NCBI GenBank assembly: GCA_013284265.1
Contig: JABTBR010000032.1
Location: forward strand, 1 to 64,000
Direction: 5' to 3'
Length of the DNA: 64,000 nucleotides
Source of the DNA: Oxalobacteraceae bacterium
Lineage (GTDB): Bacteria; Pseudomonadota; Gammaproteobacteria; Burkholderiales; Burkholderiaceae_D
The notes beneath the pieces were generated by a model, which did no database searches, was not told the origin of the DNA, and saw only the letters and a program-made list of their open reading frames with translations. Each line of letters opens with the position of its first letter. Position 1 is the first letter of the stretch. Shown here in pieces: positions 34,913-58,964 of this stretch. Made by a program: the position numbers and the translations under genes.

Positions 34913-34965
34913 AGTCCATGCCACACCGGAAAACAACAAGAGTGAGAACAGATGGCTGCGACTTA

Positions 34966-35001
34966 TGAGAATAAGTGGCGGCAGTGACGAGAATATTCAG
35001 C
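34966..35001 (+). repeat. Isolated end-like repeat behind the DUF4238 gene
   Basis: AGAATAAGTGGC followed by GACGAGAATATTCAGC matches the right-hand end of the repeat-bounded STAND cassette (AGAATCGGTGGC ... GACGAGAATACGCA, about 50,947-50,978) at about 21 of 28 positions and in the same orientation. It lies 54 bp after the DUF4238/SEC-C gene. No matching inverted left end was found between 32,173 and 32,449. Confidence 0.45.
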
Positions 35002-35112
35002 CATGATTCGCTCAGCACTATAATGACAGTGCTGCAAGGAGGTGGGCGCTCCACTTCTTATCGATGCGATTGTTCACGAGGGTGAAGTAGCATCCTCTTT
35101 TCTGAGCGAATT

Positions 35113-36552: not shown

Positions 36553-37803
36553 TCATCGTTGCCATATTGACGCCCAGAATGCATCATCCTGATACGCCAA
36601 GTCGCTAAAGCGTCGCATCTGTACAGGATCGCGCGAGCGCAGTGCTTTGATTGCTGGCCCTAACGGTGCGAGATAAGTATCGGCCGCCTTCTTGAAGTCG
36701 GTGATTCGCAACTCATCACTTTTCGTTCGCTCGAAAGCGATACGATGGGCCGCTACCCAAAGGGCGATAATGATGCGAAAAATTCCCCCGGAAAGCTCTA
36801 GAATTAACTCTGCGAATGAGTCATTGAGTTCAAGTGGTTTTGCGACGAACTGATAGCGCATCAATTCCGGTAGCAGCAGCCTTCTAAAATCAGATTCATT
36901 GGGGTCTTCGAAATGCCGAAACTGATGCGCTCCACCGGTAGTGAATCGTTGCGTGGTAGCTAGGCGTTTGGTTAGAGCGTACATCCCATCGGGAGTGCCG
37001 GAGTATGCTAACGCGAACCGACCAGTGTTGTACATATTAAAAAAAAATTTTAGGCACTCGTCTTCGACAATCGATAATTCGATTTCGTCCTCGTTCTTCG
37101 TCTTGTTTCGGCGCTTTGCCAACGCCGGAAGCCGGAACAGATTCTGAATTTCGTCTAGATGCAGCAATCCCAGAAATTGCGCAGATGCAGCCTGCTGCCA
37201 TTCTTCCAGCATGACTGATCCTTTACGACGGTTCAATCCTAGTAAGTGTTCGAAGCGACTCGATTTGCAAAGCCTATTCCATTCATACATCAATGTAGAC
37301 GCCAGATCTGCCGAGCGCCCCGACGCCGGCACATCGCATGACATCCAGACTACTTGTTTCAATGGGCGGGAAGCCTGCGGAAAAGATTCGTGGAAAATGA
37401 CCTGCTCATAAGTACTTAGGGTATTGCGGATCGCCGATGTCTTCCCTGTCCCGGGCAGGCCCGTGATGAGTGCTGACATGGCTGGAGGCTTTGGCCTCGC
37501 GCCGAAGCCTTCTCCTCTTAGCGACGACCAAGTCGAAGGTTGCTGAGGGTCTAGGTGGTGGTAATTGCTGCGGATCATCAAGTCGAAAGTATCAGCGAGT
37601 TTAGCCTCCTCTCGGGATACGACATGGAGTTCGCGAAGCATTTGTAGGTGATGCAATCGAATGTGCCGAGGAATGTTTGCGACGTCCTCCGGCATCCTTG
37701 GCAAATAAGTCAGCACGTCAAGAGCCTCTTGCGGGGATAGGATTGGACGCATTCGGTCAATCAGCAGATTTCCGGTATATGGATTAATGTATTGGGTAGT
37801 CAA
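36553..37803 (-). CDS. tnsC: TnsC/TniB-like AAA+ transposition ATPase
   Basis: A 416-residue ATPase with Walker A GLPGTGKTS (115-123) and Walker B LLHLDEIQNL (213-222). A sensor-like YSGTPDG and a TnsC-type helical C-terminus follow. It links target recognition by TniQ/TnsD to the transposase. The gene begins 8 bp after the tnsB stop in the order tnsA-tnsB-tnsC, an operon typical of Tn7-like elements. Confidence 0.87.
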   Translation of the reverse strand: MTTQYINPYTGNLLIDRMRPILSPQEALDVLTYLPRMPEDVANIPRHIRLHHLQMLRELHVVSREEAKLADTFDLMIRSNYHHLDPQQPSTWSSLRGEGFGARPKPPAMSALITGLPGTGKTSAIRNTLSTYEQVIFHESFPQASRPLKQVVWMSCDVPASGRSADLASTLMYEWNRLCKSSRFEHLLGLNRRKGSVMLEEWQQAASAQFLGLLHLDEIQNLFRLPALAKRRNKTKNEDEIELSIVEDECLKFFFNMYNTGRFALAYSGTPDGMYALTKRLATTQRFTTGGAHQFRHFEDPNESDFRRLLLPELMRYQFVAKPLELNDSFAELILELSGGIFRIIIALWVAAHRIAFERTKSDELRITDFKKAADTYLAPLGPAIKALRSRDPVQMRRFSDLAYQDDAFWASIWQR

Positions 37804-37811
37804 ATCCTCTC

Positions 37812-40016: not shown

Positions 40017-40900
40017 GCGGATCTCCCAGAAACAATAGGATTGATCTCCCAGAATTCTTGCTCAGCTAAAAGAATAAGAGGGGATGAAGGTCGCCAACTG
40101 CGCCGTAAGTCGAAGGGCAATTTTCCAGTCCACACCGCCCCCCAGAAGCCAAGCTTCGCCGTCTCGGGGCAACCACAATATTGTTCGATTTTTCGAAGGA
40201 CGTGGGTCAAATCTCTTTGGTTAAAATCTTGGACGTGCTGGCAAAGCCAGTGGGCGAGGAGTGCGGAATCTGTCCCTCCCAATGCCCAGTAGCTATTGCC
40301 TTTGAGAAGATCCGCGACTTGCGTGTCATAAAGGCTTTGGGTGATCAGGAGCCATGGAACATTTCGGCATGCCCAATATTCGCGTTCCAGCCCAAGCAAG
40401 AACTTCGTTCTTTTTCCAGTCCAGACATTCGAAGGCTTGACCGAAATAGCGAGTAGTTGAAACCCTTCATGTGTACGCAAGGTGAGCAGCAGATCAGTCG
40501 TCATGATCCAAGGAGCTGCTATTCCGTGTTCACTCACGGTGGGATGTTTCATTTTCATCTGTTCAGCCAATTCAATCGTGCCCGAAAAAGCGCCGGTGCG
40601 GCTGCCAATTTGGTAGGAATTTAGTTCGTGGCTGCATGAATGTAGATTGAGTGCAAATTGCTCACGGATGTCCACGACGTCGGGATGCATCGTCGAAAAT
40701 AGCAGCGCGACGAGCTCCTGATCTGAGAGTAGCTCGCGCTGCCGCCCGCGCCACAACTGCAAATGGGAGCGGCCCATACTTGAAGGGTCGGAGCGGCTGA
40801 CACGATGCCATGGAATATAATTTTCGTACGTGCCCATTCCTCGCCCTAAGGCCGTGAATCGACGCAAATCGCTCGGGGTAAATATCGGTTTCGATCTCAT
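40004..40900 (-). CDS. tnsA: TnsA-like 5'-end endonuclease of heteromeric transposase
   Basis: A 298-residue protein of the TnsA PD-(D/E)XK family. The catalytic triad reads E62 (SDQELVALL), D136 (WIMTTDLLLTL) and K155 (LLAISVKP). It cleaves the 5' strands so that transposition is cut-and-paste. First gene of the tnsABC operon. The preceding 40,901-41,277 interval is noncoding and is the likely right end of the element. Confidence 0.85.
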   Translation of the reverse strand: MRSKPIFTPSDLRRFTALGRGMGTYENYIPWHRVSRSDPSSMGRSHLQLWRGRQRELLSDQELVALLFSTMHPDVVDIREQFALNLHSCSHELNSYQIGSRTGAFSGTIELAEQMKMKHPTVSEHGIAAPWIMTTDLLLTLRTHEGFQLLAISVKPSNVWTGKRTKFLLGLEREYWACRNVPWLLITQSLYDTQVADLLKGNSYWALGGTDSALLAHWLCQHVQDFNQRDLTHVLRKIEQYCGCPETAKLGFWGAVWTGKLPFDLRRSWRPSSPLILLAEQEFWEINPIVSGRSAWQA

Positions 40901-42329: not shown

Positions 42330-42642
42330 CTGACCGAGCACGTCACTGAGACCCTCGCAAGGATCAGGGCAGTTGCGGGCAATAGTTGAGGGCAGTCCTC
42401 GGCCAGAAGTAGCCTCTCGACTTCAAGTGCAGTTGAGTCCATCACTGACCCTCCATGGCTCGACTCAAGCCGCGTGCGTGGATTGTCGCATTTGTTAATA
42501 CTGTGTTCGCACACAACATAGATGCAGTTACTCGTAACAGAATATGCGTTTTCGGCTTATGTTCGACCGATATTAAATTCCAGCCGCCCATGTTATATTG
42601 ATAACGCGCCAAGTACCTTTTACACCCACCGACGGAGATTTC
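42330..42642. other. Noncoding interval before the TIR gene
   Basis: No supported gene. A minus-strand open frame here overlaps the IS remnant and shows no recognisable domain. The AT-rich part at about 42,480-42,620 probably holds the promoter of the TIR gene, whose Shine-Dalgarno GGAG lies 5 nt before its ATG. Confidence 0.4.
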
Positions 42643-43686
42643 ATGCCCCTCACTGAGAGAACGGATGAACTAAAGCGATTGATTCAAGCCTTTGAGTCCG
42701 AGGCTGGAAAGTTCTATCCCCTGACGCTCTCACTTCTGTACGTGACGCAAAATGCCCCCAGCGTCAACCGTCAAATCCCGAAGCCAAACCACGGGATTAT
42801 GTTGTGGCAGTATTACGGCGCGATCCATGGAGACAGCGGTGCGGCGGAGCTCGCCAAAAACTTGAACGATAGCGATTTGAAATGGGGTATCCGAGGTGCC
42901 GAGCTGAGTTGCTTTGGTGTACTCGAAGGCGACGGCTGCGAATTATTTGTTCGTATGGCGCAGCGTGCAGGGGCGCTGTTCGACAAGGCCGAGGCTAGCT
43001 TGCTCAAGTCGCTGATGGTGAAAGAAATAATGGAAGTGGAACTGAAGCGATGTTCACCAGCCAAGCCTACTGCAGCAGCGAACGATAATCCGCTCGCAGT
43101 TTGGCTGAACTACTTGCTGTTCCACCTCTCTCTGACCAACCCCGGTAGGGAGAGGGCTCAGCGCATCGATCCCGATCCATTTACCCTCTCCCTGCTCGCA
43201 TTGGAAAGGCTCTACTCAGAACGTTCGATTGATAAAGTGGACAGGTCGGTACGGCAGCTGTCAGCGCTCCGATTTAAAGTGGCGATGTCATTTCCTGGCG
43301 AGCGACGACAGTACGTCTCAGACACGGTCACCGCACTTCGACCGCAACTGCCGCCTGACTCAATCTTCTATGATTACGACTACCAAGCTCAGCTTGCAAA
43401 GCCCAATTTGGACGTCCTCCTGCAAGACGTCTACCGAAACCAGGCCGACCTGATAGTCATCTTCTTGTGCGAAGAGTACACCGAGAAACAATGGTGTGGT
43501 CTAGAGTGGCGGGCAATCCGGGACCTGATTAAACACAAGAATGACGATCAGGTCATGTTCGTGCGGTTCGACGATGCTTCCGTCGAAGGCGTGCTTTCTA
43601 TTGACGGCTACGTCGACGCAAGAGTTCATTCGCCAGAGAAAATGGCCGATTTTATTCTGCAGCGAATACAAACCTCGACGTCGTGA
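42643..43686 (+). CDS. TIR-domain protein, probable NAD-cleaving effector
   Basis: About 347 residues. The C-terminal TIR domain (about 210-345) starts LRFKVAMSFPGERRQYV, has the box ADLIVIFLCEEYTEKQW and ends with a likely catalytic glutamate, E288 in WCGLEWR. The N-terminal ~200 residues are helical and unrecognised (MLWQYYGAIHGDSGAAELAK; LAVWLNYLLFHLSL) and may be the sensor. Bacterial TIR proteins commonly deplete or convert NAD+ during phage infection. No Thoeris ThsA-type partner is adjacent, so it may be single-gene. The ATG at 42643 was chosen for its Shine-Dalgarno. Confidence 0.8.
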   Translation: MPLTERTDELKRLIQAFESEAGKFYPLTLSLLYVTQNAPSVNRQIPKPNHGIMLWQYYGAIHGDSGAAELAKNLNDSDLKWGIRGAELSCFGVLEGDGCELFVRMAQRAGALFDKAEASLLKSLMVKEIMEVELKRCSPAKPTAAANDNPLAVWLNYLLFHLSLTNPGRERAQRIDPDPFTLSLLALERLYSERSIDKVDRSVRQLSALRFKVAMSFPGERRQYVSDTVTALRPQLPPDSIFYDYDYQAQLAKPNLDVLLQDVYRNQADLIVIFLCEEYTEKQWCGLEWRAIRDLIKHKNDDQVMFVRFDDASVEGVLSIDGYVDARVHSPEKMADFILQRIQTSTS

Positions 43687-45169: not shown

Positions 45170-45763
45170 ATGGCAGCACTTGCAATCCCCGTGGTTGAAG
45201 GCGCAGCGTTGGCGTTATTGCGGGCGCTTGGCATTGTCGCTGTGGGAGGCGTCGGAGCGGCGGCAATAAACGAAGCCGCAAAGAAAAAGGCCGAGTCCGC
45301 CGAAAACGCAAAGGCGACACCAATTGCTCAGGCGGGAACGCAAACGAAGACTCGCGACACTTGCTCGAAATGCCCTCCCGATTGCGGGACACTAGTTCCG
45401 CGTGACTGGAACATGTCAGAGATTTCCCGTGCCTATCAGGCACGGATTACCGGATTCGTTCCTGGCACCGAGTGGAGTTTCCGAGGCAACGACTTTGATG
45501 GATTTAAGTCGCAAGCCTGCCTGCTATTGGAGGCGAAAGCTAAATATGATCAGTTCTTCTCGTCTGTGAGCAAGCCTAAGGTGTTCTTTTCCCTCACAGG
45601 TTTGCCCAAAATTCGGGATCAGGCTATCCGCCAGAGTGAGGTCATCGAGGCATCTCCACCGTCCCAGCTGCACTGGCATTTCATGGAGCCGCTGAGCTAC
45701 GGTTTCTTTTCTCAGGCCTTCGCCAATTCCTTTTTACCTATTGTCACCCATCTGACCCCATGA
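45170..45763 (+). CDS. Tox-REase-5 domain toxin, T6SS effector
   Basis: A 197-residue protein. Two N-terminal hydrophobic stretches (about 7-32) are followed by a Tox-REase-5 nuclease domain from about residue 64: CSKCPPDCGTLVPRDW, GNDFDGFKSQACLLLEAKAKYDQFF. The likely PD-(D/E)XK residues are D110 and E121-x-K123. Members of this toxin family include T6SS-delivered DNases such as TseT. The stop overlaps the immunity gene start. It is the presumed killing cargo of the PAAR operon. Confidence 0.83.
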   Translation: MAALAIPVVEGAALALLRALGIVAVGGVGAAAINEAAKKKAESAENAKATPIAQAGTQTKTRDTCSKCPPDCGTLVPRDWNMSEISRAYQARITGFVPGTEWSFRGNDFDGFKSQACLLLEAKAKYDQFFSSVSKPKVFFSLTGLPKIRDQAIRQSEVIEASPPSQLHWHFMEPLSYGFFSQAFANSFLPIVTHLTP

Positions 45764-46494
45764 GTTTCCATCTCACCATTAGCGCAAACTTCCGGACGGG
45801 CGCCAGCCTTCCATCCATCGATGATCAATACAACGATCTTTGGAAAATTGCCAAATCTCTTGAAACTGCTGGCCTGCCCTTGGACGGATGGTTCCCGCCA
45901 GCAGATTCTGAAGCAAATTCGTTGCTTAACAATGCTTTCGTTCCCACCGGTCCGAGTCCTGCCGCACTTGCCATGGCAAAGGCTGACAAGAGCAATCTGG
46001 CCACGGACCTGCGCACGCTTGGCGTTTGGAACGGCGAGGAAAATGAAGGCGCCATAGTCTATACAGCGACATACAATACGGGGCGCATTCCTTCCCACTT
46101 TGATTTCAGCGCCGATGAAGTTCCCGCTTTCATGGACTATCGCAACGTGGTTAATCTGGTGCAAACTTTGATCAGGTTATGGCGTCCGATGTTGGTGAAG
46201 ATCGCACCTGGTGGCTACGCTGGAAAAAACGTGTTTCCGGATCGCCCTCCGGTGGGATGGATGATTTATTTGCCGTTTGAAATAGACTCGAAACAGGTTC
46301 CAGAGGCTGCGGTTATCCTCCCCATCCTAGATGAGCACGACAATAAACAACGGCTGGGTACTTTGATCGTATCGGTCGCGGAAACATTCGATCCGAACAA
46401 TCCGGAGCACGTCAAGAAAGCCAACGCTATCGAGACAAGGCTGGTGGATCAGGATCTTCTGCCGACTTTGAGGGAGTTTGTGACGAGGTTCTGA
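45760..46494 (+). CDS. Imm52-like immunity protein
   Basis: A 244-residue cytosolic protein starting inside the stop of the Tox-REase-5 gene (ATGA). Sequence such as GYAGKNVFPDRPPVGWMIYLP and the overall length agree with the Imm52 family, the usual partner of Tox-REase-5. It should bind and neutralise the toxin. The family call rests partly on its position. Confidence 0.75.
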   Translation: MSFHLTISANFRTGASLPSIDDQYNDLWKIAKSLETAGLPLDGWFPPADSEANSLLNNAFVPTGPSPAALAMAKADKSNLATDLRTLGVWNGEENEGAIVYTATYNTGRIPSHFDFSADEVPAFMDYRNVVNLVQTLIRLWRPMLVKIAPGGYAGKNVFPDRPPVGWMIYLPFEIDSKQVPEAAVILPILDEHDNKQRLGTLIVSVAETFDPNNPEHVKKANAIETRLVDQDLLPTLREFVTRF

Positions 46495-46755: not shown

Positions 46756-49700
46756 ATGTCCTCCATATTTGTGGTCACGCCATCAGACATTCGGCAACTG
46801 AACGATAAGCAAGCCAGGGAGTTTGTGGCTCGCCTGTGTAAGGCAGAGCTGCGTGAGGAAGGTCTAGGAACAGCACCGATCACTTGGGGCGGCGACCAGC
46901 GAGCGGCAGACGGTGGTACCGACGTTAGAGTCACCATCACACAATCAGTCGAGCGGGCTGGCTACATCCCCAGAAACGCCACCATTTTCCAGGTGAAAGC
47001 GGAAAGCTTCATACCGAGTAAGATCCCAAAGGAAGTTGCTCCGAAAAGAGTGCTGCGTCCGTCGGTTCTGGAGTTAAGCAAGATATCTGGCGCCTACGTG
47101 ATTGTATCTACGAAGGATGACTGTTCGGACACCTCCTTAAAGAGTCGGGTAAAAGCCATTCATGACTGTCTAGCGCAGGTCGGTATACAAGATAGTGTGC
47201 ACCACGATTTTTTTGACTCCAATCGCCTTGCCGATTGGGTAGAGCATCATCCTGGCGTTCAGATCTGGTTGCGAAACATACTTGGCAAGTCGCTGCAAGG
47301 ATGGAGGCCATTTGGCGCCTGGGCTTACCGAGAACAAAGCAGTAATGACGAATATTTGTTAGACGAAAAGGTAAAAGTCTTCGCTCCCGATACCGAGCAG
47401 CCAATTCCAGTCATAGAGGCGATACAGCGGCTGCGTCTGCACCTCGCTGCGCCACGCAGATCGGTACGCATCGTCGGGCTTTCCGGTGTAGGAAAAACGC
47501 GGCTCGTGCAGGCACTTTTCGACGAGAGAATCCAGACGACTCCCCCTTCTTTGGATGCTGAGAACGTCATATTTACAGACATCTCAGACGATCCTCAACC
47601 GACGCCCCAAGATCTGGTGGAATCTCTGCTCGCGGAGTCCGCTGACTGCGTTGTAGTCGTAGACAACTGCTCCCAGGCGCTGCACGGCCGGCTGACCGAG
47701 CTCGTGCAGCGAAACCGCAGCAAGTTGAGCCTACTCACAATTGAATACGACATTCGTGACGACTACCCAGAAGGGACCGCGTGCTACCGCCTCGAAGGAT
47801 CATCTCCTGAAGTGATCACACAGCTTCTGAAGCGCCATTACAACGCACTCTCCGATTTGGACATCCATAAGATTGTCGATTTTTCCGACGGCAATGCGCG
47901 GGTGGCGTACGCTTTGGCATCTACCTCTGAGATAAAAGGTCAGTTAGCACAGCTGCGTGACGAGCAATTGTTTCGACGCTTGTTTTTCCAGAACCATAAC
48001 GAGGACACTGAGTTACTTCGCTGTGCTCAGGCTGCCAGTTTGCTGTATTCGTTTGATGCCGAAGATGAATCGGAAACGTCCGAGCTGGCAAAATTAGCGG
48101 GGATCGCGGGAACATCAGTTCTAAACTTTCAGCACTGCGTCGCCGAACTGATGCGACGAGGGTTGGTACAGCAACGTGGCCGATGGCGAGCCGTTTTACC
48201 ACACGCAATCGCTAACAGGCTTGCTTCGCTCAGCTTAGAGGCCCGTCCGGCAATAACCTTTATCGACAAGCTGGTCTCCAATAGCACCGTTCGTGTAGCG
48301 CGCTCTTTCTCTCGCCGGATAGGCATGCTCCATGAATCAAAAATAGCCGTCAGCATTGCTCATGAGCTGGTGAAGATCGAAGGTCTTCTGTGGAACGTCT
48401 GTCAGTTGAACGAACTTGGGCGTCAAATGCTGGGGAATATCGCCCCCTTGGCTCAGCGTGCTGTTCTGGAGAACCTATTCGCCGCGACTGCAGACGTATC
48501 GTTCACCGCCGTGGCACATCCACATCGCGCGCACTATACGCGGCTGCTACGCTCGCTGGCATATGATAAAGAGCTGTTTGACGTCGCTGCACAAGCCTTG
48601 CTCAGGTTCGCGTTGGCGGAAGATGAGAACTATCGCAGCGACTCTGTCCGCGATCTTCTAAAGTCACTATTCTCCGCCCATCTTTCTGGAACGTTGGCGA
48701 CGACAACTCAGCGCGCGCGGTTCATCCAATCGTTGTTCGACGCTGAAGACACGGCGAGAAAGAAGCTGGCTCTTAGTTTGTTGGGAGCGGCCTTGCAAGC
48801 GCGACATTTCTCCTCGCATTATGGCTTTGACTTTGGAGCGCTAAAGCGCGGATATGGCTGGCATCCAAAGACAGCAGAAGAAATTCGAAATTGGTACACG
48901 ACGTTCCTGAATCTTGCAGCCACAGCGGGGCAATCACGTAGTGAGATCGGAATGGAAGCGCGGGGCCTCATAGCCCACGTAATCCGCGAACTATGTGGGG
49001 ACGAGGTGTTAATGGCGACCGTCGCTGATATTGCGCACGGATTGAAGGCAGTGGATGGCTGGCCTGCAGGCTGGATCGCGGTACGAAATACCATCCGTTG
49101 GCACAAGGACGACTATGGCAGTGAGGTCCTGGATCGATTGCGTCTGCTTGAAAAAATACTTGCACCAAACGATTTGATGGGGAAGATTCAGGCCAAAGTG
49201 CTCTCCAACGGTATGTTCGTTACTGATGATTTCGACGATGATGAAGATACAGGCGAGAGCTACAGCGCAAGTATAGCCAGAGCCTTACAGGAAGTAGAGG
49301 CGCTCGGCCTAGCCGCAGCTTCCGATGACGTGTTATTGGCCACGCTACTCCCGAACCTGCTGACGACATCGAGAACATCAAGGTCGTATTACTTTGGTAT
49401 TGGAGTAGCACAAGCCTATTCGTCGTTCTCAGCACTTTTAGCACAGATAAAACAAGTGGTGATTGGACAGCCAGAGCAGCCTGTTGATCTGCAATTTGTC
49501 TGCGGGCTAGTGGTTGGTCGCCACAAAATTAAACCAAAAGACGTGTCGGATTTCTTAGACTCTGCCATCGCGGACGAAGTATGGGGCCGCTATCTCCCAC
49601 GGCTGCAACTTGCTAATGTGCTTGATGACGCCGGCTTTCTGCGCTTGCTCGAATCAATCCGATTGCGCATAGCACCTAGCTATGCATATCGCGATCTTGA

Positions 49701-50598
49701 AGCAGGAGGTAGAACCGCACCGCTGTCGGCGCAGCAAATTGCGACCTTGATAGATGCTTTAGCCGAGTTATCTGAAGGTGGTTTGAGCGTAGCGATCGAT
49801 ATCCTCTACATGGTCCTCTACAGCAAGGACGAACGAGACCAAGCATTCCTGAGCGATCTACAAGCCTATCTGGCCCGTCTTTTATCCACCGTGGACTGGG
49901 CAAAACTAGAGCTCACTATACTGAACAATTTGACGCATCTTGAATCTGTCATTGAGTTTGCCGTGTCAAATGGCGATCCACGTAGCGTCACAGCACCTCT
50001 ACTACTTCGCTTGATCGAACAGCAACGATCAAGCAATCGATTTCTGGGGAACCAACTTGGCGACGTCCTTCGTCCGCTCTTTGAGGAAAATCCGATTGCC
50101 GCGTTGGACATCGTGTTTGAACATGCCGATGACGGTTTTCTGCCGCGCTTTCTCACTACCATGGCGCCCAACCACTACGGTGAGTCCGTCCTCAGCGTCA
50201 TAACAGACTCGACCTGGCTGCTGTGGTGTGAAGATGCTCCTGAAAAATGGCGTTTTGCCGCTGAAGAATGCCTGCTTTTCGCGACGACAACCGTTGCCAA
50301 TACAGCAGAACAGCAAATAACAATAAGCCCCGCTGCAATCACCATCTTTCATAACACACCAGAGAAACGGGAGGTAATTGACATGTATTTAAATCGGCTC
50401 GTACCGACTAGTTGGTCCGGCTCACGTGCCGCCGTGATGCGGCAGCGGCTGCACCTCCTCGATGAACTGAACCCTACGGGGGACGCGCAGTTGCGCTCGC
50501 TGCTGGAGGATGCCAAGGAACGCTTTAACCGCAGCGTCCTCGACGAGGAGGCGCGGGAACAAAAGAACTATAACGAAGAATCGAAGTCCTTCGAGTGA
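46756..50598 (+). CDS. Nuclease-STAND NTPase, putative antiviral protein
   Basis: A 1280-residue protein. The N-terminal domain (about 1-180) looks like a PD-(D/E)XK nuclease: WGGDQRAADGGTDVRV with D56, then IFQVKAE (Q79-V-K81). The central NTPase has Walker A GLSGVGKT (241-248) and Walker B CVVVVDNC (298-305), followed by a winged-helix-like region. The C-terminal ~750 residues are helical repeats, suited to sensing a ligand. This plan (effector nuclease, STAND ATPase, helical sensor) matches the architecture of Avs and related STAND defence proteins, though it is shorter than most Avs. The exact family is not recognised. Confidence 0.75.
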   Translation: MSSIFVVTPSDIRQLNDKQAREFVARLCKAELREEGLGTAPITWGGDQRAADGGTDVRVTITQSVERAGYIPRNATIFQVKAESFIPSKIPKEVAPKRVLRPSVLELSKISGAYVIVSTKDDCSDTSLKSRVKAIHDCLAQVGIQDSVHHDFFDSNRLADWVEHHPGVQIWLRNILGKSLQGWRPFGAWAYREQSSNDEYLLDEKVKVFAPDTEQPIPVIEAIQRLRLHLAAPRRSVRIVGLSGVGKTRLVQALFDERIQTTPPSLDAENVIFTDISDDPQPTPQDLVESLLAESADCVVVVDNCSQALHGRLTELVQRNRSKLSLLTIEYDIRDDYPEGTACYRLEGSSPEVITQLLKRHYNALSDLDIHKIVDFSDGNARVAYALASTSEIKGQLAQLRDEQLFRRLFFQNHNEDTELLRCAQAASLLYSFDAEDESETSELAKLAGIAGTSVLNFQHCVAELMRRGLVQQRGRWRAVLPHAIANRLASLSLEARPAITFIDKLVSNSTVRVARSFSRRIGMLHESKIAVSIAHELVKIEGLLWNVCQLNELGRQMLGNIAPLAQRAVLENLFAATADVSFTAVAHPHRAHYTRLLRSLAYDKELFDVAAQALLRFALAEDENYRSDSVRDLLKSLFSAHLSGTLATTTQRARFIQSLFDAEDTARKKLALSLLGAALQARHFSSHYGFDFGALKRGYGWHPKTAEEIRNWYTTFLNLAATAGQSRSEIGMEARGLIAHVIRELCGDEVLMATVADIAHGLKAVDGWPAGWIAVRNTIRWHKDDYGSEVLDRLRLLEKILAPNDLMGKIQAKVLSNGMFVTDDFDDDEDTGESYSASIARALQEVEALGLAAASDDVLLATLLPNLLTTSRTSRSYYFGIGVAQAYSSFSALLAQIKQVVIGQPEQPVDLQFVCGLVVGRHKIKPKDVSDFLDSAIADEVWGRYLPRLQLANVLDDAGFLRLLESIRLRIAPSYAYRDLEAGGRTAPLSAQQIATLIDALAELSEGGLSVAIDILYMVLYSKDERDQAFLSDLQAYLARLLSTVDWAKLELTILNNLTHLESVIEFAVSNGDPRSVTAPLLLRLIEQQRSSNRFLGNQLGDVLRPLFEENPIAALDIVFEHADDGFLPRFLTTMAPNHYGESVLSVITDSTWLLWCEDAPEKWRFAAEECLLFATTTVANTAEQQITISPAAITIFHNTPEKREVIDMYLNRLVPTSWSGSRAAVMRQRLHLLDELNPTGDAQLRSLLEDAKERFNRSVLDEEAREQKNYNEESKSFE

Positions 50599-51036: not shown

Positions 51037-51245
51037 TTAGCCAATGACGTGTGCGGACAATTCCACAATGAAATTGCTATCAAACTGGGAGTTTTCGATT
51101 CCACCGCCACGCGTCATATACCCGCAGGGATTGCAGACGACCCTGCAGCGTCCTATCGTGTAATCTAAAGATTCATGCATGTGGCCATGAACCCAAAGAT
51201 CTGCTTTGTCAGCCAATTGCCAGCGCTGTGATCGAACGAATTCCC
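51037..51245 (-). pseudogene. 3' fragment of a metallophosphoesterase gene
   Basis: The minus-strand frame ending at TAA 51037-51039 encodes WQLADKADLWVHGHMHESLD, then IGRCRVVCNPCGYMTRGG and ENSQFDSNFIVEL. HGHMH is the calcineurin-type phosphoesterase metal motif near the C-terminus. Only about 65 residues remain; no start or upstream metal motifs exist, and the 5' side runs into the cREC gene in another frame. It is a truncated relic. Confidence 0.7.
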
Positions 51246-51502
51246 GCTTCCATTTTCGCGCGCGCAGACGTGTTGGCTGAATGAACTGTCATCTTGGGCG
51301 AAGTGAATGCTCGAACAGCTACCGCCTCTTCCACCCAGACGACCACATCATAGCCAGTGCCACGTTTATCGTCGCCAAGGTCGTGATCAAGACTCAGCTC
51401 GGTCACCTTGCCGGTTTCAAGGAAGGCGATCACCTCATCGGGCTAGTACGCTCTTACCCATCCCGCTGGTGTCGCGCGCTCGTCGTTCAGAAATACTCGC
51501 AT
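51209..51502 (-). pseudogene. Cyclic-phosphate-processing receiver (cREC) domain protein, interrupted by TAG
   Basis: Read from ATG 51502: MRVFLNDERATPAGWVRAY, TAG at 51445-51443, then PDEVIAFLETGKVTELSLDH, DLGDD and a C-terminal SPKMTVHSANTSARAKMEAG. This matches the cREC domain found in RNA-repair contexts. The TAG falls at the position usually held by tryptophan (VYWPDEV), and the first acidic pair reads ND instead of the usual DD. Total length would be 97 residues. It runs in the same direction as, and 91 bp downstream of, the exonuclease-HAD gene. Confidence 0.72.
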
Positions 51503-51593
51503 TTCTTGCCTCTCGGTTCCAATAGATACATCGACATCTGCGCTTGGACATCAGCATGCATCAGCATGCGGTCGTCAAAACCCTGCAGTGCCG

Positions 51594-52691
51594 TTATTGC
51601 TTCTGAATCAGACCCAAGCGGCTGCGTATATCTTGTTCCAGTTCATCAGTAAGTCCGACTTTCGTTTCGCAGCACACCAAGTTCTCCAAGCCAGGTTGGA
51701 ACCAATACGGCCTATCGTCAATAGCGATCCAGCGCATCTGCGGCCACCCTGATTGCTCGATCCATCCTTCGATCTCTACTTGACGCTCATAGGGACCAAT
51801 ACGCTTGAACAGGTGCTGGACTTCATGCCAGTCTGGCGTCACATCAATTATCCGTTGAGCGATATCGGCACTGAAGTATGTCCGCAGGTCGTCGATTGTT
51901 TGGTCCTGACGCCATGCGCTACTGATGACGACTTCAACGTCAGGGAAGTCGCGCAAAATTTTTTCTAAGCGTGGAAGGTGGCAAAGCGTATCTGATTGAT
52001 AGCGGCAAGGGTCTGGATGAAGGACTCCGTCAAAATCGAGAAATAGAATTGTGTCACCCCGAGGACGAAGACGACCAGTATCAATGCCGGGATGCACGGC
52101 CGCAGGACTATTCAGATTTTGCTCTGTGATGGACCCTGTTTCTGGCATTAGGGTACTGAGCTCGTCGTCATGGTGCTCTGGAGCCTTGCTAACGACCTCT
52201 GAGGCCTCCGCCAGCCGCCATGCCTGATACCCTGCCCTGAGAGCTCGCGCGTCCGCTAAAGCGTGATGTGGCGGCCATTCTGGTGAAAACGCTCGCAGCA
52301 GTGCATGTTGGAACGTGGGATCGCGCGCAATTTCTGCGGTCAGCAAAAGCTTATCGCCTACCGATTCTGGATAGCTATCGAATTCGTCGCCAAGTAGAGC
52401 GTCCGCGAGCAGCTCCCAGTCCGTAAAGTGGTCGAAGATCAAAGTCGCTTTTTCGGACAAGGCATCAAACCACTGTCGCAGTCGCTGAGTGAGTTCTGTT
52501 CGTGTGCAGGTCACATTCGGGATGCGGCCCAATACAGGCAGGACGGCCGCGCGGACGAAATCACTGCAATCTTCAACCCGGTAATCGGTTCGCTCACCGT
52601 AGAATTCTCGACCATCCTCGGCTACCAGGGCAACGCTGATGAGGTCGATTTGAACAAAATCGGTGAATTCGGTATCAACGAACACTAGCAT
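51594..52691 (-). CDS. DEDD-type 3'-5' exonuclease fused to RNA-repair HAD domain
   Basis: About 365 residues. N-terminal RNase-T/DEDDh-like exonuclease (1-170): D6-T-E8 in VFVDTEFTDF, FDHFTDWELL, and H143/D147 in HHALADARALR. After an acidic linker the C-terminal HAD domain (215-365) has FLDFDGVLHPD (D219, D221), VVISSAWR and IAIDDRPYW, the form known from 'Swiss-army-knife' RNA-repair proteins. The combination suggests RNA end trimming plus end dephosphorylation. The ATG at 52691 starts the conserved core; a GTG at 52703 is possible. It overlaps the upstream gene end. Confidence 0.78.
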   Translation of the reverse strand: MLVFVDTEFTDFVQIDLISVALVAEDGREFYGERTDYRVEDCSDFVRAAVLPVLGRIPNVTCTRTELTQRLRQWFDALSEKATLIFDHFTDWELLADALLGDEFDSYPESVGDKLLLTAEIARDPTFQHALLRAFSPEWPPHHALADARALRAGYQAWRLAEASEVVSKAPEHHDDELSTLMPETGSITEQNLNSPAAVHPGIDTGRLRPRGDTILFLDFDGVLHPDPCRYQSDTLCHLPRLEKILRDFPDVEVVISSAWRQDQTIDDLRTYFSADIAQRIIDVTPDWHEVQHLFKRIGPYERQVEIEGWIEQSGWPQMRWIAIDDRPYWFQPGLENLVCCETKVGLTDELEQDIRSRLGLIQKQ

Positions 52692-53106
52692 CAGTTGGCT
52701 CACAGTCAGTCGACGGCGAAGAACGGTCAGTCGCTAACTTCAATAGGTGCTTTACACGCTCACGACCGTCAGGGCTGTCTTTGCTCTCAGATTGATCTGG
52801 CGGCTTGGTAAATTTCACGAGGTAACTTGAATGCAGATTACCACACTGTACAGCGAGTAATTCATGCTTCATTTTAGCTTCTTCTGAGCTGATCAGACCC
52901 AGTAACCTTCCCATGCGAACAGCTCCCTTGAGGTACGCAAAGCGCTCGTCAATGTTGTATTGGAAACCTGCCGCGCGCTCTGGTGGGGCAGTTGCGACGG
53001 CATGTTGCAGTCGTTCTTTTTCAACGCCAAGAAGCAATTCAAAATACTGGTGAAAATGATGCTGCAGCTCCGAGTTATCGGCACCGCGTTGCAAATCGTG
53101 CTTCAT
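52675..53106 (-). CDS. Hypothetical protein, 143 aa
   Basis: The ATG at 53106 has GGA six nt upstream. The protein is largely helical (NSELQHHFHQYFELLLGVEK; MKHELLAVQCGNLHSSYLVK) with a charged tail. Its 3' end overlaps the exonuclease-HAD start, so the two are probably coupled. No family recognised. Confidence 0.55.
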   Translation of the reverse strand: MKHDLQRGADNSELQHHFHQYFELLLGVEKERLQHAVATAPPERAAGFQYNIDERFAYLKGAVRMGRLLGLISSEEAKMKHELLAVQCGNLHSSYLVKFTKPPDQSESKDSPDGRERVKHLLKLATDRSSPSTDCEPTDASVR

Positions 53107-53141
53107 AAAAATTCCAGTTGCTAGACTCGTCGCCCTTACGG

Positions 53142-53495
53142 TTACGTTGAGTAAAAATGGACAACGAGGTCCCAGAGCCATTTGATAATAACAGCCACAA
53201 TTCCCAATACGAATATACTCATCCACAAAACGAATCCACGGATTGCCATGTAGACGAAGCCGAGGGTGCCTGTCAGCTGAGCAGTTCGTTCCAGCCATCG
53301 AGGGCCGAGCTCCCATCCCAGATTCTCATGCAAAACTGTAGGCAGGATGCCGCCAAGAATTCCTGCCGTAAGCGCGCAGCCCAGGATCAAAACTGCTTGC
53401 CCTCCTGACAAACTCTGGAATGTGACCGCCGGCATTCGGAGGGTGATCGCTGCGCTCAGAAGCAATACAGCTGCAATGTATGCGGCAGACCACAT
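53142..53495 (-). CDS. Small membrane protein, 117 aa
   Basis: Three to four hydrophobic segments (YIAAVLLLSAAITL; AVLILGCALTAGILGGILPT; LTGTLGFVYMAIRGFVLW; SIFVLGIVAVIIKWLW). No domain recognised. It lies 2 bp from the lipoprotein gene on the same strand, so the pair is probably co-expressed. Confidence 0.6.
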   Translation of the reverse strand: MWSAAYIAAVLLLSAAITLRMPAVTFQSLSGGQAVLILGCALTAGILGGILPTVLHENLGWELGPRWLERTAQLTGTLGFVYMAIRGFVLWMSIFVLGIVAVIIKWLWDLVVHFYST

Positions 53496-53991: not shown

Positions 53992-54267
53992 ATGAAGCTT
54001 GCAGTCATGAAAAAGCCAAATGAACAGCTGTCCGCAAGGGAGGTTTTCGGAAGAAATCTGCGCCGAGCTCGGCGTCTAAAAGACGTATCGCAAGAAGAAC
54101 TGGCGTTGCGAGCTGATCTGAGCCGTACCTATGTCAGTGAGGTCGAACGCGGCGTCAGGAACGTTTCGATCGACAATATGGGGCTCTTGTCACAGGCGCT
54201 GGGCGTGCCACTGCGCGACCTTGTTGATCCCGCGCTATTTAAGACACTCGACGCACCACCTGAATAG
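53992..54267 (+). CDS. XRE family helix-turn-helix regulator, 91 aa
   Basis: HTH_3 domain across residues 18-75: GRNLRRARRLKDVSQEELAL, then SRTYVSEVERGVRNVSI and LSQALGVPLRDL. No other domain. It precedes the 318-residue unknown gene by 90 bp on the same strand and probably regulates it. An ATG at 54007 (MKKPNEQL) is an alternative start. Confidence 0.8.
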   Translation: MKLAVMKKPNEQLSAREVFGRNLRRARRLKDVSQEELALRADLSRTYVSEVERGVRNVSIDNMGLLSQALGVPLRDLVDPALFKTLDAPPE

Positions 54268-54357: not shown

Positions 54358-55314
54358 ATGAACCAATTCTCGCAATTTCTGGTCGATGCGATCAGCGAAG
54401 ACTTTGGCCGTCCGGCCAAACTACTTAACCTGTTGAATGAGTGGCCGGATATTCGAGTCCCTATCGCCCCACAGTGTGACAGCATCGCATCGGACAGTGT
54501 CGTTCGTTGGCACGAGCTCGGAATGGCTCCAGCCATGGAGTGGCCGGGCCGCGAGCACGGGCACTTGCTTGGCTGGAAATTGTCTGGCGGGCACTACTAC
54601 GAGAGTTTCGTCGTCCAGCGTCCTGAGTTTGCTCAGTTTGGCCGTAGGGTAGTAGTCAAAAACTGGTCCTGCGACATCAAGCAGGTATATGGTTTCTCTG
54701 CGTCCGGATCGGATCTGAAAAAGTTCCGATCTATGGATGAGATGGCCGAGCGCAAATCCCAGGAACTGATCAGTGAGGTCTCACCTCAGGCTTTGGCGCG
54801 CAACCTTTCCTACCACGAGGTACGCATCCTCCGGCCCGACACAGATGATTCCTTCCAACATCACCAGTGGGATAGCCGCCTGTTCCTGATGAACAGCGGC
54901 GGCTCGCATCATTTCGCGGCAGCCAAGTATATCGCTGCACGCCTTGATGAGCCGGTCCCGCTAACGGGACCTTTGCACGCATATTCACTTAATCCGACCG
55001 CCATTGCTTCGCTGCGTCGGGATTTTGATATCTTCGTAATCTCGGATGAGCCCGCGATCTCAGGGGCCTTCCATGACGCCATGGCAAGCTTCAGGGCGAC
55101 GTGGCTTTGGACGTACATGCCGCGACCATACGACAATTCTAAGGCAATCCTACTGCCCAAAAACGAACGCCGGTCGCAACGGGTCGCTTCGGTTCTTCGC
55201 AATGCCGGGATCGTCGATCTAGGTGCGTATCTCGAAGAGCTGGCTTGCAGCGGTAATGCGCTTTTCCCGCCCACTGCGATTGTGGCGGGCCTCGCAACAT
55301 ATATCTCACCATAG
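54358..55314 (+). CDS. Hypothetical protein, 318 aa, next to XRE regulator
   Basis: No family recognised with confidence. It is cytosolic, with a block LFLMNSGGSHHFAAAKYIAARL near the middle and FDIFVISDEPAISGAFHDAM after it. The conserved-looking histidine pair (GGSHHFA) and the acidic SDEPAI may be functional. It follows an XRE regulator in a defence-rich island, a common layout for self-regulated defence or toxin genes, but no toxin motif is evident. Confidence 0.6.
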   Translation: MNQFSQFLVDAISEDFGRPAKLLNLLNEWPDIRVPIAPQCDSIASDSVVRWHELGMAPAMEWPGREHGHLLGWKLSGGHYYESFVVQRPEFAQFGRRVVVKNWSCDIKQVYGFSASGSDLKKFRSMDEMAERKSQELISEVSPQALARNLSYHEVRILRPDTDDSFQHHQWDSRLFLMNSGGSHHFAAAKYIAARLDEPVPLTGPLHAYSLNPTAIASLRRDFDIFVISDEPAISGAFHDAMASFRATWLWTYMPRPYDNSKAILLPKNERRSQRVASVLRNAGIVDLGAYLEELACSGNALFPPTAIVAGLATYISP

Positions 55315-55468: not shown

Positions 55469-56485
55469 CTACGTTGGAAGGATGTCACGCAACCCAGACG
55501 GAAAATCCGGACTAGTCCACCTGCGCTTTTCTTCCGGATCTGGATGACGCGCTTCCCAAGAATCGGCAGGCGCCTCTCCAGCCTGAAACCATAGGGCGCG
55601 CGTTTCTTTGCTCCGAGCCACGACCGTGGTTGGGGCATAGGCGGCATGCCGGTGATTTAAGGCATCGACGCAGTCTAAGGAAACCTCGGAGTATAGCGAG
55701 TCGACGACGGGGCGATGCGTGAAGAGAAGGCACTGCGCTGGGGAGAGTGGCAGCGTGATTTCAATAGCTGGGTTTTTTAGCCCGATGGCACGCTCGTAAG
55801 GATGCCGACGGTAGGCGGTGGGGTCGCACCACGTTGATGGCGCATCGGTGGTTAGGAACCCAATAGGGTCACTTGTGCAAAGCACCGTCTTGTGCATGCC
55901 AAGCAGCGTCGGAAGGATCAGCTTTACCGCTGTATTAAGCAGTGTTGTAGTCGCCGTTTCCTTCAAGTTGTCGAAGTCCCCTGGTTGAGGAATGTAGACG
56001 TTCGACCGCTCAACGTGAGGTGGAAGCTCTGGCTCAACCGTTCTGGTTTCCCAGTCGGGACCTGCGACCTTCTCGAACATCGCTTTCAATTCCTCCATTT
56101 GATTGAGGAAGTGATCGCGGCTTGCTGCGGTACGGGTGTGTGCCGTCGCAGCGAACAAACATGCCCAAATCCAGTCCTCTTCCGTTAAGGGGCGTTTGAA
56201 ATTGAATTTGCTAGTTCTCACCTTCGTGAAATGCGACTCCACAGTCGCAAGGCCATGTTCGAGCCGAAGGTCATGTCCACCATCGGGCGCGGTCAGCGTG
56301 TACATATCGGATTCACGAAAGATCTTCTCGGGTGCCTTGGCTTTAGGGTTTTCACCCTTTCTATCAAACAGCCAAACGTAAGGCGTGTTCATGCTTGTCT
56401 GCGGCGCCGAAGGATCCAGCCAAGCTTTTAGGTAGCATGCAGGGATGAAATGCTGCTTTCGATGCTCGTACTTCTTTCGTTTCAT
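55469..56485 (-). CDS. DUF4238 domain protein, second copy
   Basis: About 338 residues. The N-terminal RKQHFIPACYLKAWLD is the DUF4238 signature; LCTSDPIGFLTTDAP and IEITLPLSPAQCLLFTHRP agree with the family. Unlike the copy at 32,450 it has no SEC-C motif or long C-terminal region. The ATG at 56485 is chosen; the frame opens a little further upstream from TTG. Function is unknown. Confidence 0.75.
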   Translation of the reverse strand: MKRKKYEHRKQHFIPACYLKAWLDPSAPQTSMNTPYVWLFDRKGENPKAKAPEKIFRESDMYTLTAPDGGHDLRLEHGLATVESHFTKVRTSKFNFKRPLTEEDWIWACLFAATAHTRTAASRDHFLNQMEELKAMFEKVAGPDWETRTVEPELPPHVERSNVYIPQPGDFDNLKETATTTLLNTAVKLILPTLLGMHKTVLCTSDPIGFLTTDAPSTWCDPTAYRRHPYERAIGLKNPAIEITLPLSPAQCLLFTHRPVVDSLYSEVSLDCVDALNHRHAAYAPTTVVARSKETRALWFQAGEAPADSWEARHPDPEEKRRWTSPDFPSGLRDILPT

Positions 56486-56651
56486 AGTCTTAGTGGCCAA
56501 AGAAAGTTATTATCGCGCCGATGCGGAGATGCCCCTGCCTCAAGCGGTTGCTTGCTGCCGACTGCTCCTAGACGGTAGCGGGCGCATGAGAACTCTAACT
56601 AACTATCTGACTGCTTGTGTCAGGTCAGTCTGAGCCAGTTCATAAAGTGCA

Positions 56652-57408: not shown

Positions 57409-58509
57409 TCAAGCGGCTTGCTTTAATTCTTCTGGCCGAATCCGCTCCGGATTCAACCAGACTTGGTCTTCGAGTTTCCAGTCCCTCGTGTCCCGCGACC
57501 AGCGTTGCGGATTGCGGTTCCTGGCATCACGATAGACGTCCTCACGGCGCGCCAGGATCGCTGCATCCATGCCGCTGTGGCGCTGCGCCGGCGTCACGAA
57601 CTTCAGGCCGCTGTGCTTGTGTTTCTGGTTATACCAACGCACGAATTTTTGTGTCCACGTCCTCACCTCGCCCAAACTCCCAAACGGCTTGCTCGGGTAG
57701 TCTGGACGGTACTTGCAGGTTCGGAACAGCGACTCTGCATAGGCGTTGTCGTTGCTCACACGCGGCCGGCTAAACGACGGCGCCACGCCCAACTGCTCCA
57801 ACGTGGCGAGCATCGTCGAACCCTTCATGGCGCTGCCATTGTCCGAGTGGAGCACCAGCGCGCGGCCGGCCAGCCCTTCAGCCAAACTGGTGCGGCGCAT
57901 CAGCAGCGATGCCAGTTCCGCCGACTCGGCCACATGCACTTCGTGGCCGACGATCTTACGACTGAACACGTCGAGCACCATGTACCAGTAGTAAAACTGG
58001 CCCTTCACCGCAGACGGCATCCACGTGATGTCCCAACTCCAGACTTGGTTCGGACCGGTGGCGCAGTGGCTTGTAAGAACCCGGCTGGACGGCTTCTTGG
58101 CTCGGCCCCGGTGATGTTGCTGCGACGTCTCTTTTAACACTCGGTAGAAGCTCGATTCCGATGCCACGAACACTCCCCGGTCGGCCAGCGTCGGTACGAT
58201 CTGGCTCGGTGGCAGGCTGGCGAATTCCTCGCTGTTGGCAACTGCCAGGATCTGCGCGCGCTCGTCGTCGCTCAATTTGTTCGCCGGCTCGGGTCGCGTA
58301 CTCGTCGTGCGGCTATCGGCAGCGACCGCATCGTCGCCTTCCCGTACCCACCGCTGGAACGTACGCAAGCTGATATCCAACTCAGCGCACGCTGGTTCAA
58401 GACGGCTGCCAGCCGTCACTGCTTCACGAATCAGCTCTACACATAACAGGCGATCTGGGACGCTGGTCAGTCGTCCTCTTTGTCCCCCCAGATCGCCTGG
58501 GCTTTTTTT
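57409..58509 (-). CDS. IS3-family transposase OrfB (frameshift product part)
   Basis: Encodes the rve/DDE catalytic part in the -1 frame relative to OrfA. D in QVWSWDITWMPS, D in LVLHSDNGSAMKG and E in DNAYAESLFRTCKY form the DDE triad; HSGLKFVTPAQRHSG follows. The frame is open upstream of the shift site only as a shadow of OrfA. A full OrfAB fusion of about 520 residues would be the active transposase. Confidence 0.85.
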   Translation of the reverse strand, partial: KKSPGDLGGQRGRLTSVPDRLLCVELIREAVTAGSRLEPACAELDISLRTFQRWVREGDDAVAADSRTTSTRPEPANKLSDDERAQILAVANSEEFASLPPSQIVPTLADRGVFVASESSFYRVLKETSQQHHRGRAKKPSSRVLTSHCATGPNQVWSWDITWMPSAVKGQFYYWYMVLDVFSRKIVGHEVHVAESAELASLLMRRTSLAEGLAGRALVLHSDNGSAMKGSTMLATLEQLGVAPSFSRPRVSNDNAYAESLFRTCKYRPDYPSKPFGSLGEVRTWTQKFVRWYNQKHKHSGLKFVTPAQRHSGMDAAILARREDVYRDARNRNPQRWSRDTRDWKLEDQVWLNPERIRPEELKQAA

Positions 58510-58964
58510 CGCAGGATCAGCAGCGCCGCCGCTTCGGCCAGCGCTTTCTCCTTGCGTTGCAGATCTTTCTCCAATTGCCGGATGCGTTTCTTGTCTTCCT
58601 TCGACTGCGTCTGGTGGCCACGTGACTGTTGCGGCGCGCTGGCGTTGGCCGACATACAGGCGGCCCGCCATGCGGCAATCTGCTCGGCGAACAGGCCCTT
58701 GCGACGGCAGTATTCCGCCAGCTCGGCCGCGTTCAACGCCGCCGTTTCGAGCACCACAGCAAATTTATCCTCTGAGGTCCATTCCTCAGCATTTTTCCCA
58801 TTACCTGGCACCGGCGTTCCTTGATTACGAAGTTGACGGCGCCAAGTATAAAGCGTTTGCTCCGTGATTCCGCTCTCGCGGGCCAACTCCGACACCAGCT
58901 TGTTCTGTGGCGGCATCATCTGCCGCAGTAGCGCTTCTTTCCGTTCTGCTGGATACTTGTTCAA
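58467..58964 (-). CDS. IS3-family transposase OrfA
   Basis: A 165-residue helix-turn-helix protein: MMPPQNKLVSELARESGITEQTLYTWR, with a C-terminal leucine-rich coiled coil (RIRQLEKDLQRKEKALAEAA). It starts at TTG with GAGAGA upstream. A run of seven A (58509-58503 on the coding strand) near its 3' end in frame A_AAA_AAA can shift ribosomes -1 into OrfB. Confidence 0.82.
   Translation of the reverse strand: MNKYPAERKEALLRQMMPPQNKLVSELARESGITEQTLYTWRRQLRNQGTPVPGNGKNAEEWTSEDKFAVVLETAALNAAELAEYCRRKGLFAEQIAAWRAACMSANASAPQQSRGHQTQSKEDKKRIRQLEKDLQRKEKALAEAAALLILRKKAQAIWGDKEDD

What the first reader, a model, noticed from the sequence alone, without database searches (positions are those of the whole stretch)
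51209..52691. Linked cREC domain and exonuclease-HAD fusion: candidate RNA-repair/processing pair
The cREC domain and this HAD form were both described computationally in RNA-damage-repair contexts (work of Burroughs and Aravind). Here they are adjacent on one strand, and the HAD is fused to a DEDDh-type exonuclease. That suggests trimming of cleaved RNA followed by end healing, possibly countering RNase toxins such as HEPN proteins.
Basis: partly seen in the sequence, partly recalled or inferred. Interest (0 to 1): 0.65.

Follow-up and report, generated by a model that had tools for sequence, protein, structure and literature searches.

The report
Decayed RNA-end-processing gene cluster
A bacterial defence island carries one protein that joins an RNA-trimming enzyme to a phosphate-removing enzyme; relatives often keep these as neighbouring genes, but two companion genes here are broken.

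Summary
The large gene (51594-52703, minus strand) is an open fusion of an RNase AS-like DEDDh 3'-5' exonuclease (EXO) and a HAD_SAK_2 phosphatase. The cREC gene behind it has an in-frame TAG at an otherwise invariant position. After it lies only the last ~55 residues of a calcineurin-like phosphoesterase (MPE). The end of the operon is decayed.

EXO-HAD linkage is well supported. With the window genome left out, the two lie within 2.5 kb in 8 of 24 family genomes and 7 of 10 order genomes that carry both (0.07-0.08 pairs expected), on one strand in 14 of 15. MPE is near EXO in 17 of 78 loci. cREC is near EXO in 2 of 78, and near HAD in 0 of 13 genomes with both. Most EXO genes (52 of 78) have none of these partners. 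No other EXO-HAD fusion was seen in 146 EXO loci, and no RNA ligase among 61 picked neighbours.

I read it as a decayed copy of a modular, mobile "unblock and degrade" 3'-end-processing cluster, not a ligation-repair pair. The biochemistry is untested.

The parts
51594..52703 (-). EXO-HAD fusion gene, 369 aa from the GTG at 52703 or 365 aa from the ATG at 52691
   Evidence: Open frame; HAD_SAK_2 97.3 bits; RNase AS relation
52209..52691 (-). RNase AS-like DEDDh 3'-5' exonuclease domain (aa 5-165)
   Evidence: DEDDh residues invariant in 31 sequences; profile hits RNase AS chains at E about 1e-13; seven best fold matches are RNase AS chains
51642..52049 (-). HAD_SAK_2 phosphatase domain (aa 219-354)
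   Evidence: PF18143; DxD and DD motifs kept; model mean pLDDT 91.4
51209..51502 (-). Broken cREC gene with an in-frame TAG at 51443-51445
   Evidence: PF20274 88.3 bits with 1 TAG inside; split profile match; alignment
51058..51231 (-). Remnant of a calcineurin-like phosphoesterase (MPE), only about the last 55 residues
   Evidence: 69% identity over 54 aa to residues 210-263 of 265 in L123; profile positions 201-258 of 258
52675..53316 (-). Small soluble protein ORF (likely start near 53106, by my reading), overlapping the start of the fusion gene
   Evidence: 32% identity over 82 aa to a protein in the EXO-MPE-cREC cluster of L123; no match in 115 other family genomes
53142..53495 (-). Small hydrophobic, probably membrane protein
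   Evidence: 33-38% identity to proteins next to HAD-MPE-EXO in L115 and L117
53498..53932 (-). Probable lipoprotein, BamE-like at below cut-off
   Evidence: BamE 18.8 bits, cut-off 23.2; 30% identity to a protein next to EXO-MPE-EXO in L185
53992..54267 (+). Divergent XRE-type regulator
   Evidence: HTH_3 57 bits; 71% identity to the regulator beside MPE-cREC-EXO in L169

Best explanation
The locus is a partly decayed copy of a modular, horizontally moving 3'-end-processing cluster. Its parts list in relatives is an RNase AS-like 3'-5' exonuclease (EXO), a HAD_SAK_2 phosphatase, a calcineurin-like phosphoesterase (MPE) and, rarely, cREC, sometimes with a divergent XRE regulator. Shown: the parts, their recurrence, the fusion, and the decay of cREC and MPE here. 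Inferred: the enzymes act in turn on 3' ends of RNAs or short oligonucleotides cut by metal-independent nucleases. MPE and/or cREC would open the 2',3'-cyclic phosphate, HAD would remove the remaining phosphate, and EXO, which needs a free 3'-OH, would then degrade the strand. The cluster would clear damaged or foreign RNA ends rather than prepare them for ligation. In the window only the HAD and EXO steps are left, tied together in one protein.
For: EXO-HAD within 2.5 kb in 8 of 24 and 7 of 10 genomes with both, against 0.065 and 0.083 pairs expected, same strand in 14 of 15. HAD in 17 and MPE in 17 of 78 EXO loci found without regard to neighbours, against about 0.09 and 0.10 expected; 17 pairs overlap or lie under 30 bp apart. 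HAD, EXO and MPE overlap head to tail on the Rhodoferax antarcticus plasmid. Catalytic residues of both fused domains are kept. EXO fold is closest to RNase AS. One linked locus also has KptA, an RNA 2'-phosphate enzyme. No RNA ligase among 61 picked neighbours.
Against: 52 of 78 EXO loci have no HAD, MPE or cREC within 2.5 kb. Of seven annotated EXO plasmids inspected, five show no HAD or MPE nearby. HAD also occurs without EXO and MPE in many genomes (54 of 116). The fusion is a singleton. No substrate evidence exists. HAD's fold matches are weak and led by MDP-1, not by an RNA phosphatase. Genes clustered in mobile islands may lie close without joint function.
Confidence: 0.45

Rival explanations
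1. The cluster (not necessarily this copy) erases nucleotide second messengers of defence systems. cREC and MPE would open cyclic or cyclic-phosphate signals, HAD would remove phosphate, and EXO would degrade linear oligoadenylate. It would be an anti-defence or off-switch function.
For: cREC is predicted to act on cyclic ADP-ribose phosphates or 2',3'-cyclic ends (PMC7824862, PMC9503650, passages). The nearest structures of EXO belong to a polyadenylate-specific exonuclease (entry titles). EXO genes occur on 26 plasmid records. The window's island also has a TIR gene and PD-Lambda-4.
Against: No link to CBASS, Thoeris or type III CRISPR genes was tested or seen as recurrent. In phage contigs, where anti-defence is expected, EXO was never with HAD or MPE (0 of 68). 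RNase AS specificity may not carry over at 41 bits.
Confidence: 0.2
2. No joint function in this copy: a fusion made by chance in a decaying, recombining island, with EXO and HAD as unrelated accessory genes.
For: cREC is broken and most of MPE deleted. The fusion was seen in 0 of 146 other EXO loci. The linker has no relative at E 1e-4. EXO and HAD have different nearest relatives: Deefgea at 70%, standalone same-genus HADs at 48-49%. 52 of 78 EXO loci stand without these partners.
Against: EXO-HAD adjacency is about a hundredfold above random placement and nearly always on one strand, whereas HAD-cREC, also accessory genes, shows none. Overlapping genes suggest shared translation. Catalytic residues of the fusion are kept.
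Confidence: 0.22
3. RNA repair by end healing and ligation: ends cut by RNase toxins are trimmed and healed, then joined by a ligase encoded elsewhere.
For: cREC and SAK HAD were placed in phage RNA-repair neighbourhoods with ligases (PMC7824862, PMC9503650, passages). KptA stands beside EXO-HAD-MPE in one locus.
Against: No RNA ligase among 61 picked neighbours (18 Pfam families) or among the 25 of 52 families shown for 131 neighbours. A fused 3'-5' exonuclease would consume the ends to be joined. Ligases elsewhere in the genomes were not searched.
Confidence: 0.1

Closest known systems
RNase AS (Rv2179c; PDB 4hec, 4oke, 6s0m), polyadenylate-specific exoribonuclease
   Same: DEDDh 3'-5' exonuclease fold and residues; seven best fold matches; profile match E about 1e-13
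   Different: Only 41 bits against the equivalog cut-off of 200; fused to a phosphatase; substrate unknown
HAD_SAK_2 (PF18143), HAD domain of 'Swiss army knife' RNA repair proteins
   Same: 97.3 bits over the full profile; DxD and DD motifs
   Different: Fused to an exonuclease; no ligase seen nearby. The defining paper (PMC5062991) is not held, so its contexts are recalled only
cREC domain and its phage neighbourhoods (PMC7824862, PMC9503650; passages read)
   Same: Clear cREC family match; cREC-MPE proximity also occurs in phage contigs (9 of 80)
   Different: The window's gene is interrupted; its main bacterial context here is not a sirtuin or ligase set
T4 polynucleotide kinase-phosphatase (recalled as an RNA 3'-phosphatase in tRNA repair; PDB 2ia5)
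   Same: HAD phosphatase tied to a second nucleic-acid enzyme; weak fold match at rank 17, E 0.05
   Different: Partner is an exonuclease and not a kinase, which points to degradation

Membership tests
RNase AS (NF033638) | DEDDh catalytic residues | tested here: met
   D10, E12, D91/D95, H147 and D151 invariant in 31 aligned sequences
RNase AS (NF033638) | Equivalog score cut-off | tested here: not met
   41.1 bits against 200, over aa 8-115 only: a relative, not filed as RNase AS
RNase AS (NF033638) | Poly(A) specificity | not testable with these tools
   Needs an assay
HAD_SAK_2 (PF18143) | Profile score over the gathering cut-off | tested here: met
   97.3 bits against 27.5
HAD_SAK_2 (PF18143) | HAD catalytic motifs | tested here: met
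   DxD and DD invariant in 14 sequences, window included
cREC (PF20274) | Profile match | tested here: met
   65 bits for the downstream part, 88.3 bits with the stop read through
cREC (PF20274) | Intact gene and acidic active-site residues | tested here: not met
   In-frame TAG; one acidic residue that 12 of 12 relatives keep is changed
RNA repair system with ligation | RNA ligase in the neighbourhood | tested here: not met
   None among 18 Pfam families of 61 picked neighbours; 131 neighbours show 25 of 52 families without one
Known anti-phage defence system (PADLOC) | Cluster genes match a specific defence model | tested here: not met
   Fusion: a generic DEDDh hit at 18 bits; cREC part, small protein, membrane protein and lipoprotein: none at E 0.01; regulator: generic HTH hits

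The most novel reading that the evidence does not exclude
EXO-HAD-MPE(-cREC) is an undescribed mobile 'unblock-and-degrade' cassette. It clears oligonucleotides with blocked 3' ends: RNA fragments left by antiviral RNases and linear or cyclic oligonucleotide alarm signals. Plasmids, Tn7-like elements and defence islands would carry it to dampen or survive RNA-based and signal-based immunity. The window's fusion would be the Rosetta-stone protein showing that the phosphatase and the exonuclease act on one substrate in turn.
Probability: 0.2. Interest if true: 0.75.

Novelty: new variant of a known kind. Interest (0 to 1): 0.45.

Why it matters
cREC was called experimentally uncharacterised in 2022 (PMC9503650, passage), and I saw no biochemical test of this HAD family. 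A recurring cluster that puts the HAD next to, and once inside, an RNase AS-like exonuclease and beside a phosphoesterase gives a concrete, testable chain: cyclic phosphate, phosphate, 3'-OH, degradation. It also corrects the pairing: EXO, HAD and MPE are the recurrent partners and cREC an occasional one. If the cluster degrades RNA ends or signal oligonucleotides, it would be a mobile counter-measure to RNA-targeting immunity.

Tried and rejected
Rejected: an intact cREC/exo-HAD pair (stop in cREC, MPE remnant); a conserved cREC-HAD link (0 of 8 and 0 of 5 other genomes with both); more EXO-HAD fusions (0 of 78 and 0 of 68 EXO loci; 0 of 1917 plasmid records cover 80% of the fusion); a specific PADLOC system for the cluster. 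The small upstream protein is no general marker: 1 of 116 family genomes, the window's own, with relatives only in L123 and L184 of the loci searched, which are the same stretch of one organism.

Led nowhere: a joint alignment of EXO and HAD rows (A4) appears to have laid the two domains on each other and was not used. The fusion model is good for EXO only, its alignment holding no HAD-only rows; its low confidence at residues 185-242 is no proof of disorder. HAD was modelled apart. The fold search of HAD gave no match at E 0.001 or better. cREC had no relative of solved structure at E 0.1. A Cupriavidus plasmid with an EXO carries no annotation. The HAD_SAK paper (PMC5062991) is not held. Literature searches; none of the listed titles or abstract starts describes an RNase AS-HAD-MPE cluster. 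I saw passages of PMC7824862 and PMC9503650 and the abstract and outline of PMC12287305, no whole paper.

Rows dropped before counts. Family set: cREC places under 29 bits, two HAD places under the cut-off, four EXO rows of E 1e-4 or weaker. Order set: cREC places under 30 bits, four HAD places under the cut-off, no EXO row; one of the seven EXO-HAD cases there (G332) rests on an EXO fragment. Place lists for searches were copied. In one search a weak HAD (L172, 24 bits) is counted and a distant one (L202) is not. In one search, 89 loci include 11 added by hand (9 chosen for such neighbours, 2 plasmid matches), four of which repeat stretches already among the 78. One search kept the best 80 of 105 relatives and the best 80 of 91. 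One search scanned 131 of 290 neighbour genes (duplicates and some others left out by hand), 61 of these, picked by hand as mostly same-strand and near.

Full report
What is in the window. On the minus strand, 51594-52703 encodes a 369-aa protein (365 aa from the ATG at 52691). Residues 219-354 match HAD_SAK_2 (97.3 bits, cut-off 27.5). Residues 8-115 match RNase AS weakly as a single sequence (41 bits against 200), while a profile of 14 relatives matches the RNase AS structures at E about 1e-13. The predicted exonuclease domain (pLDDT 96-98 over residues 11-170) has RNase AS chains as its seven best fold matches. The DEDDh residues are invariant in 31 sequences and the HAD motifs are intact. 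HAD alone models at mean pLDDT 91.4; its fold matches are weak (none at E 0.001 or better), with the phosphatase MDP-1 first and T4 polynucleotide kinase-phosphatase at rank 17. The linker of about 53 residues has no relative at E 1e-4 among the loci held.

The cREC gene is broken. A TAG at 51443-51445 interrupts the domain. In 12 of 12 aligned relatives that position holds one and the same residue, and an acidic residue kept in the same 12 is changed here. Of 25 strong cREC places in 245 family genomes only this one has a stop; in 300 order genomes 2 of 9 do. A sequencing error cannot be excluded from the assembly alone, but a second sign of decay is independent: overlapping the cREC end in another frame are about the last 55 residues of a calcineurin-like phosphoesterase (51058-51231; 69% identity to residues 210-263 of 265 in L123), the rest being absent. 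The same genome has an intact MPE of this family elsewhere (G000:C72) but no second EXO, HAD or cREC.

Upstream genes. Divergent from an XRE-type regulator (53992-54267, +) run a probable lipoprotein, a small hydrophobic protein and a small soluble protein whose ORF overlaps the start of the fusion. Each has a relative in another EXO cluster: the regulator at 71% in L169, the hydrophobic protein at 33-38% in L115 and L117, the small protein at 32% in L123, the lipoprotein at 30% in L185. No single relative holds all of them, and the small protein had no match in 115 other family genomes.

Setting. The genome is probably a Duganella: same-genus contigs G034:C93, G025:C22 and G019:C33 have exactly the lengths of contigs of D. 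radicis, D. lactea and D. flavida. The cluster lies in a lower-G+C stretch with Tn7-like genes (TnsA, a TnsC-like ATPase, two TniQ, and a TnsB-like protein supported only below cut-off), a full-length PD-Lambda-4 gene (840 bits), a TIR protein and PDC-M17 candidates. It looks like a defence island, perhaps cargo of a Tn7-like element; the element's ends were not mapped.

Is the adjacency conserved? Three surveys. (a) Family, 245 genomes, window genome left out: EXO and HAD within 2.5 kb in 8 of 24 genomes with both (0.065 pairs expected at random placement; 7 of 8 on one strand), EXO and cREC in 2 of 5, HAD and cREC in 0 of 8. (b) Order, 300 genomes, window genome left out: EXO-HAD 7 of 10 (0.083 expected; 7 of 7 on one strand; one case rests on an EXO fragment), EXO-cREC 0 of 2, HAD-cREC 0 of 5. 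The two sets share some genomes, and a few cases share a genus. (c) 78 EXO loci from a scan of species genomes by an EXO motif (best 80 of 105 relatives kept): HAD within 2.5 kb in 17 (17 of 17 same strand), MPE in 17 (11 same strand), cREC in 2; 26 of 78 have at least one partner and 52 have none. Expected in these 0.84 Mb are about 0.09, 0.10 and 0.02. Seventeen EXO-partner pairs overlap or lie under 30 bp apart, ORF starts being taken at the first start codon. Clustering neighbours without preset query gave HAD first after EXO itself (23 of 89 loci), then MPE (17) and XRE regulators (14), relaxases 6 and cREC 5 (11 of the 89 were added by hand and four stretches occur twice).

Plasmids. EXO occurs on 26 of 72,556 records. 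Of eight inspected one has no annotation. HAD is near EXO in two of the other seven: Rhodoferax antarcticus, where HAD, EXO and MPE overlap head to tail, and Paraburkholderia kururiensis. Five show no HAD or MPE nearby. HAD also occurs without EXO: beside MPE in Variovorax and alone in Klebsiella.

Two sub-modules. In viral contigs EXO was never with HAD or MPE (0 of 68), while cREC was followed by MPE in 9 of 80, four of the nine with identical coordinates. The order cREC then MPE is also that of the window's ruin. The window may thus have combined an EXO-HAD pair with a cREC-MPE pair; this is inference. EXO and HAD have different nearest relatives (Deefgea at 70%; standalone same-genus HADs at 48-49%). 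No other EXO-HAD fusion was seen in 146 EXO loci.

How it most likely works. By established enzymology (recalled), DEDDh exonucleases attack a free 3'-OH, while ends made by metal-independent RNases carry cyclic or linear phosphates. A phosphatase tied to such an exonuclease makes most sense as an unblocking step before degradation; MPE and cREC would open the cyclic phosphate. None appears among 61 picked neighbours (18 Pfam families: calcineurin-like in five, dual-specificity phosphatase in two, KptA once, SIR2-like once). The KptA gene sits beside EXO-HAD-MPE in L145 (placed there by its motif). What this copy still does, with two of four steps left, is open.

Compared with what is known. 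cREC was defined and linked to RNA ligases and NAD-processing enzymes in PMC7824862 (passages); PMC9503650 (passages) adds calcineurin-like and SAK HAD partners in phage neighbourhoods and calls cREC uncharacterised. Neither set of passages mentions an RNase AS-like partner, and no listing of eight literature searches describes this cluster. The primary HAD_SAK paper could not be read. I file the HAD as HAD_SAK_2, the EXO as a relative of RNase AS but not RNase AS, the cREC as a broken family member, and the whole as a new variant of the known kind 'predicted RNA-end-processing conflict neighbourhoods'. Interest is moderate: the recurrent EXO-HAD-MPE link is real and apparently undescribed, but this copy is decayed and the mechanism is inferred.

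Noticed in passing
window 31129-40900: Tn7-like genes: two TniQ, a TnsC-like AAA protein, a TnsB-like protein (below cut-off) and TnsA. The element's ends were not mapped.
   Followed up: partly
window 46756-50598 (+): Full-length PD-Lambda-4_A defence protein, 840 bits.
   Followed up: no
window 42598-43686 (+) and 45170-46494 (+): A TIR-domain protein (29.1 bits, just over cut-off) and two genes matching defence candidates PDC-M17A and PDC-M17B.
   Followed up: no
window 32414-34912 (+) and 55469-56500 (-): Two DUF4238 proteins in one island, the first with a long C-terminal extension.
   Followed up: no
window 54358-55314 (+): DUF6685 protein (235.6 bits) right behind the XRE regulator on its strand.
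   Followed up: no
window 57409-58964 (-): Two overlapping ORFs that read like an IS3-type transposase; label by eye, not tested.
   Followed up: no
L304, L321, L354 (viral contigs): cREC and MPE as overlapping genes in phage contigs, 9 of 80 cREC loci with MPE, four of them with identical coordinates.
   Followed up: partly
L129:4494-5287: cREC gene overlapping a following gene that reads like a dual-specificity phosphatase; label by eye, not tested. A similar protein lies in L124.
   Followed up: no
L205, L207; genome G412:C4 and C19: Tandem arrays of several HAD_SAK_2 and EXO genes side by side, like local duplication within the cluster.
   Followed up: no
L145:6837-7523 (-): KptA/Tpt1-type RNA 2'-phosphotransferase beside EXO, HAD and MPE in Rhodoferax sp. 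U11-2br.
   Followed up: partly
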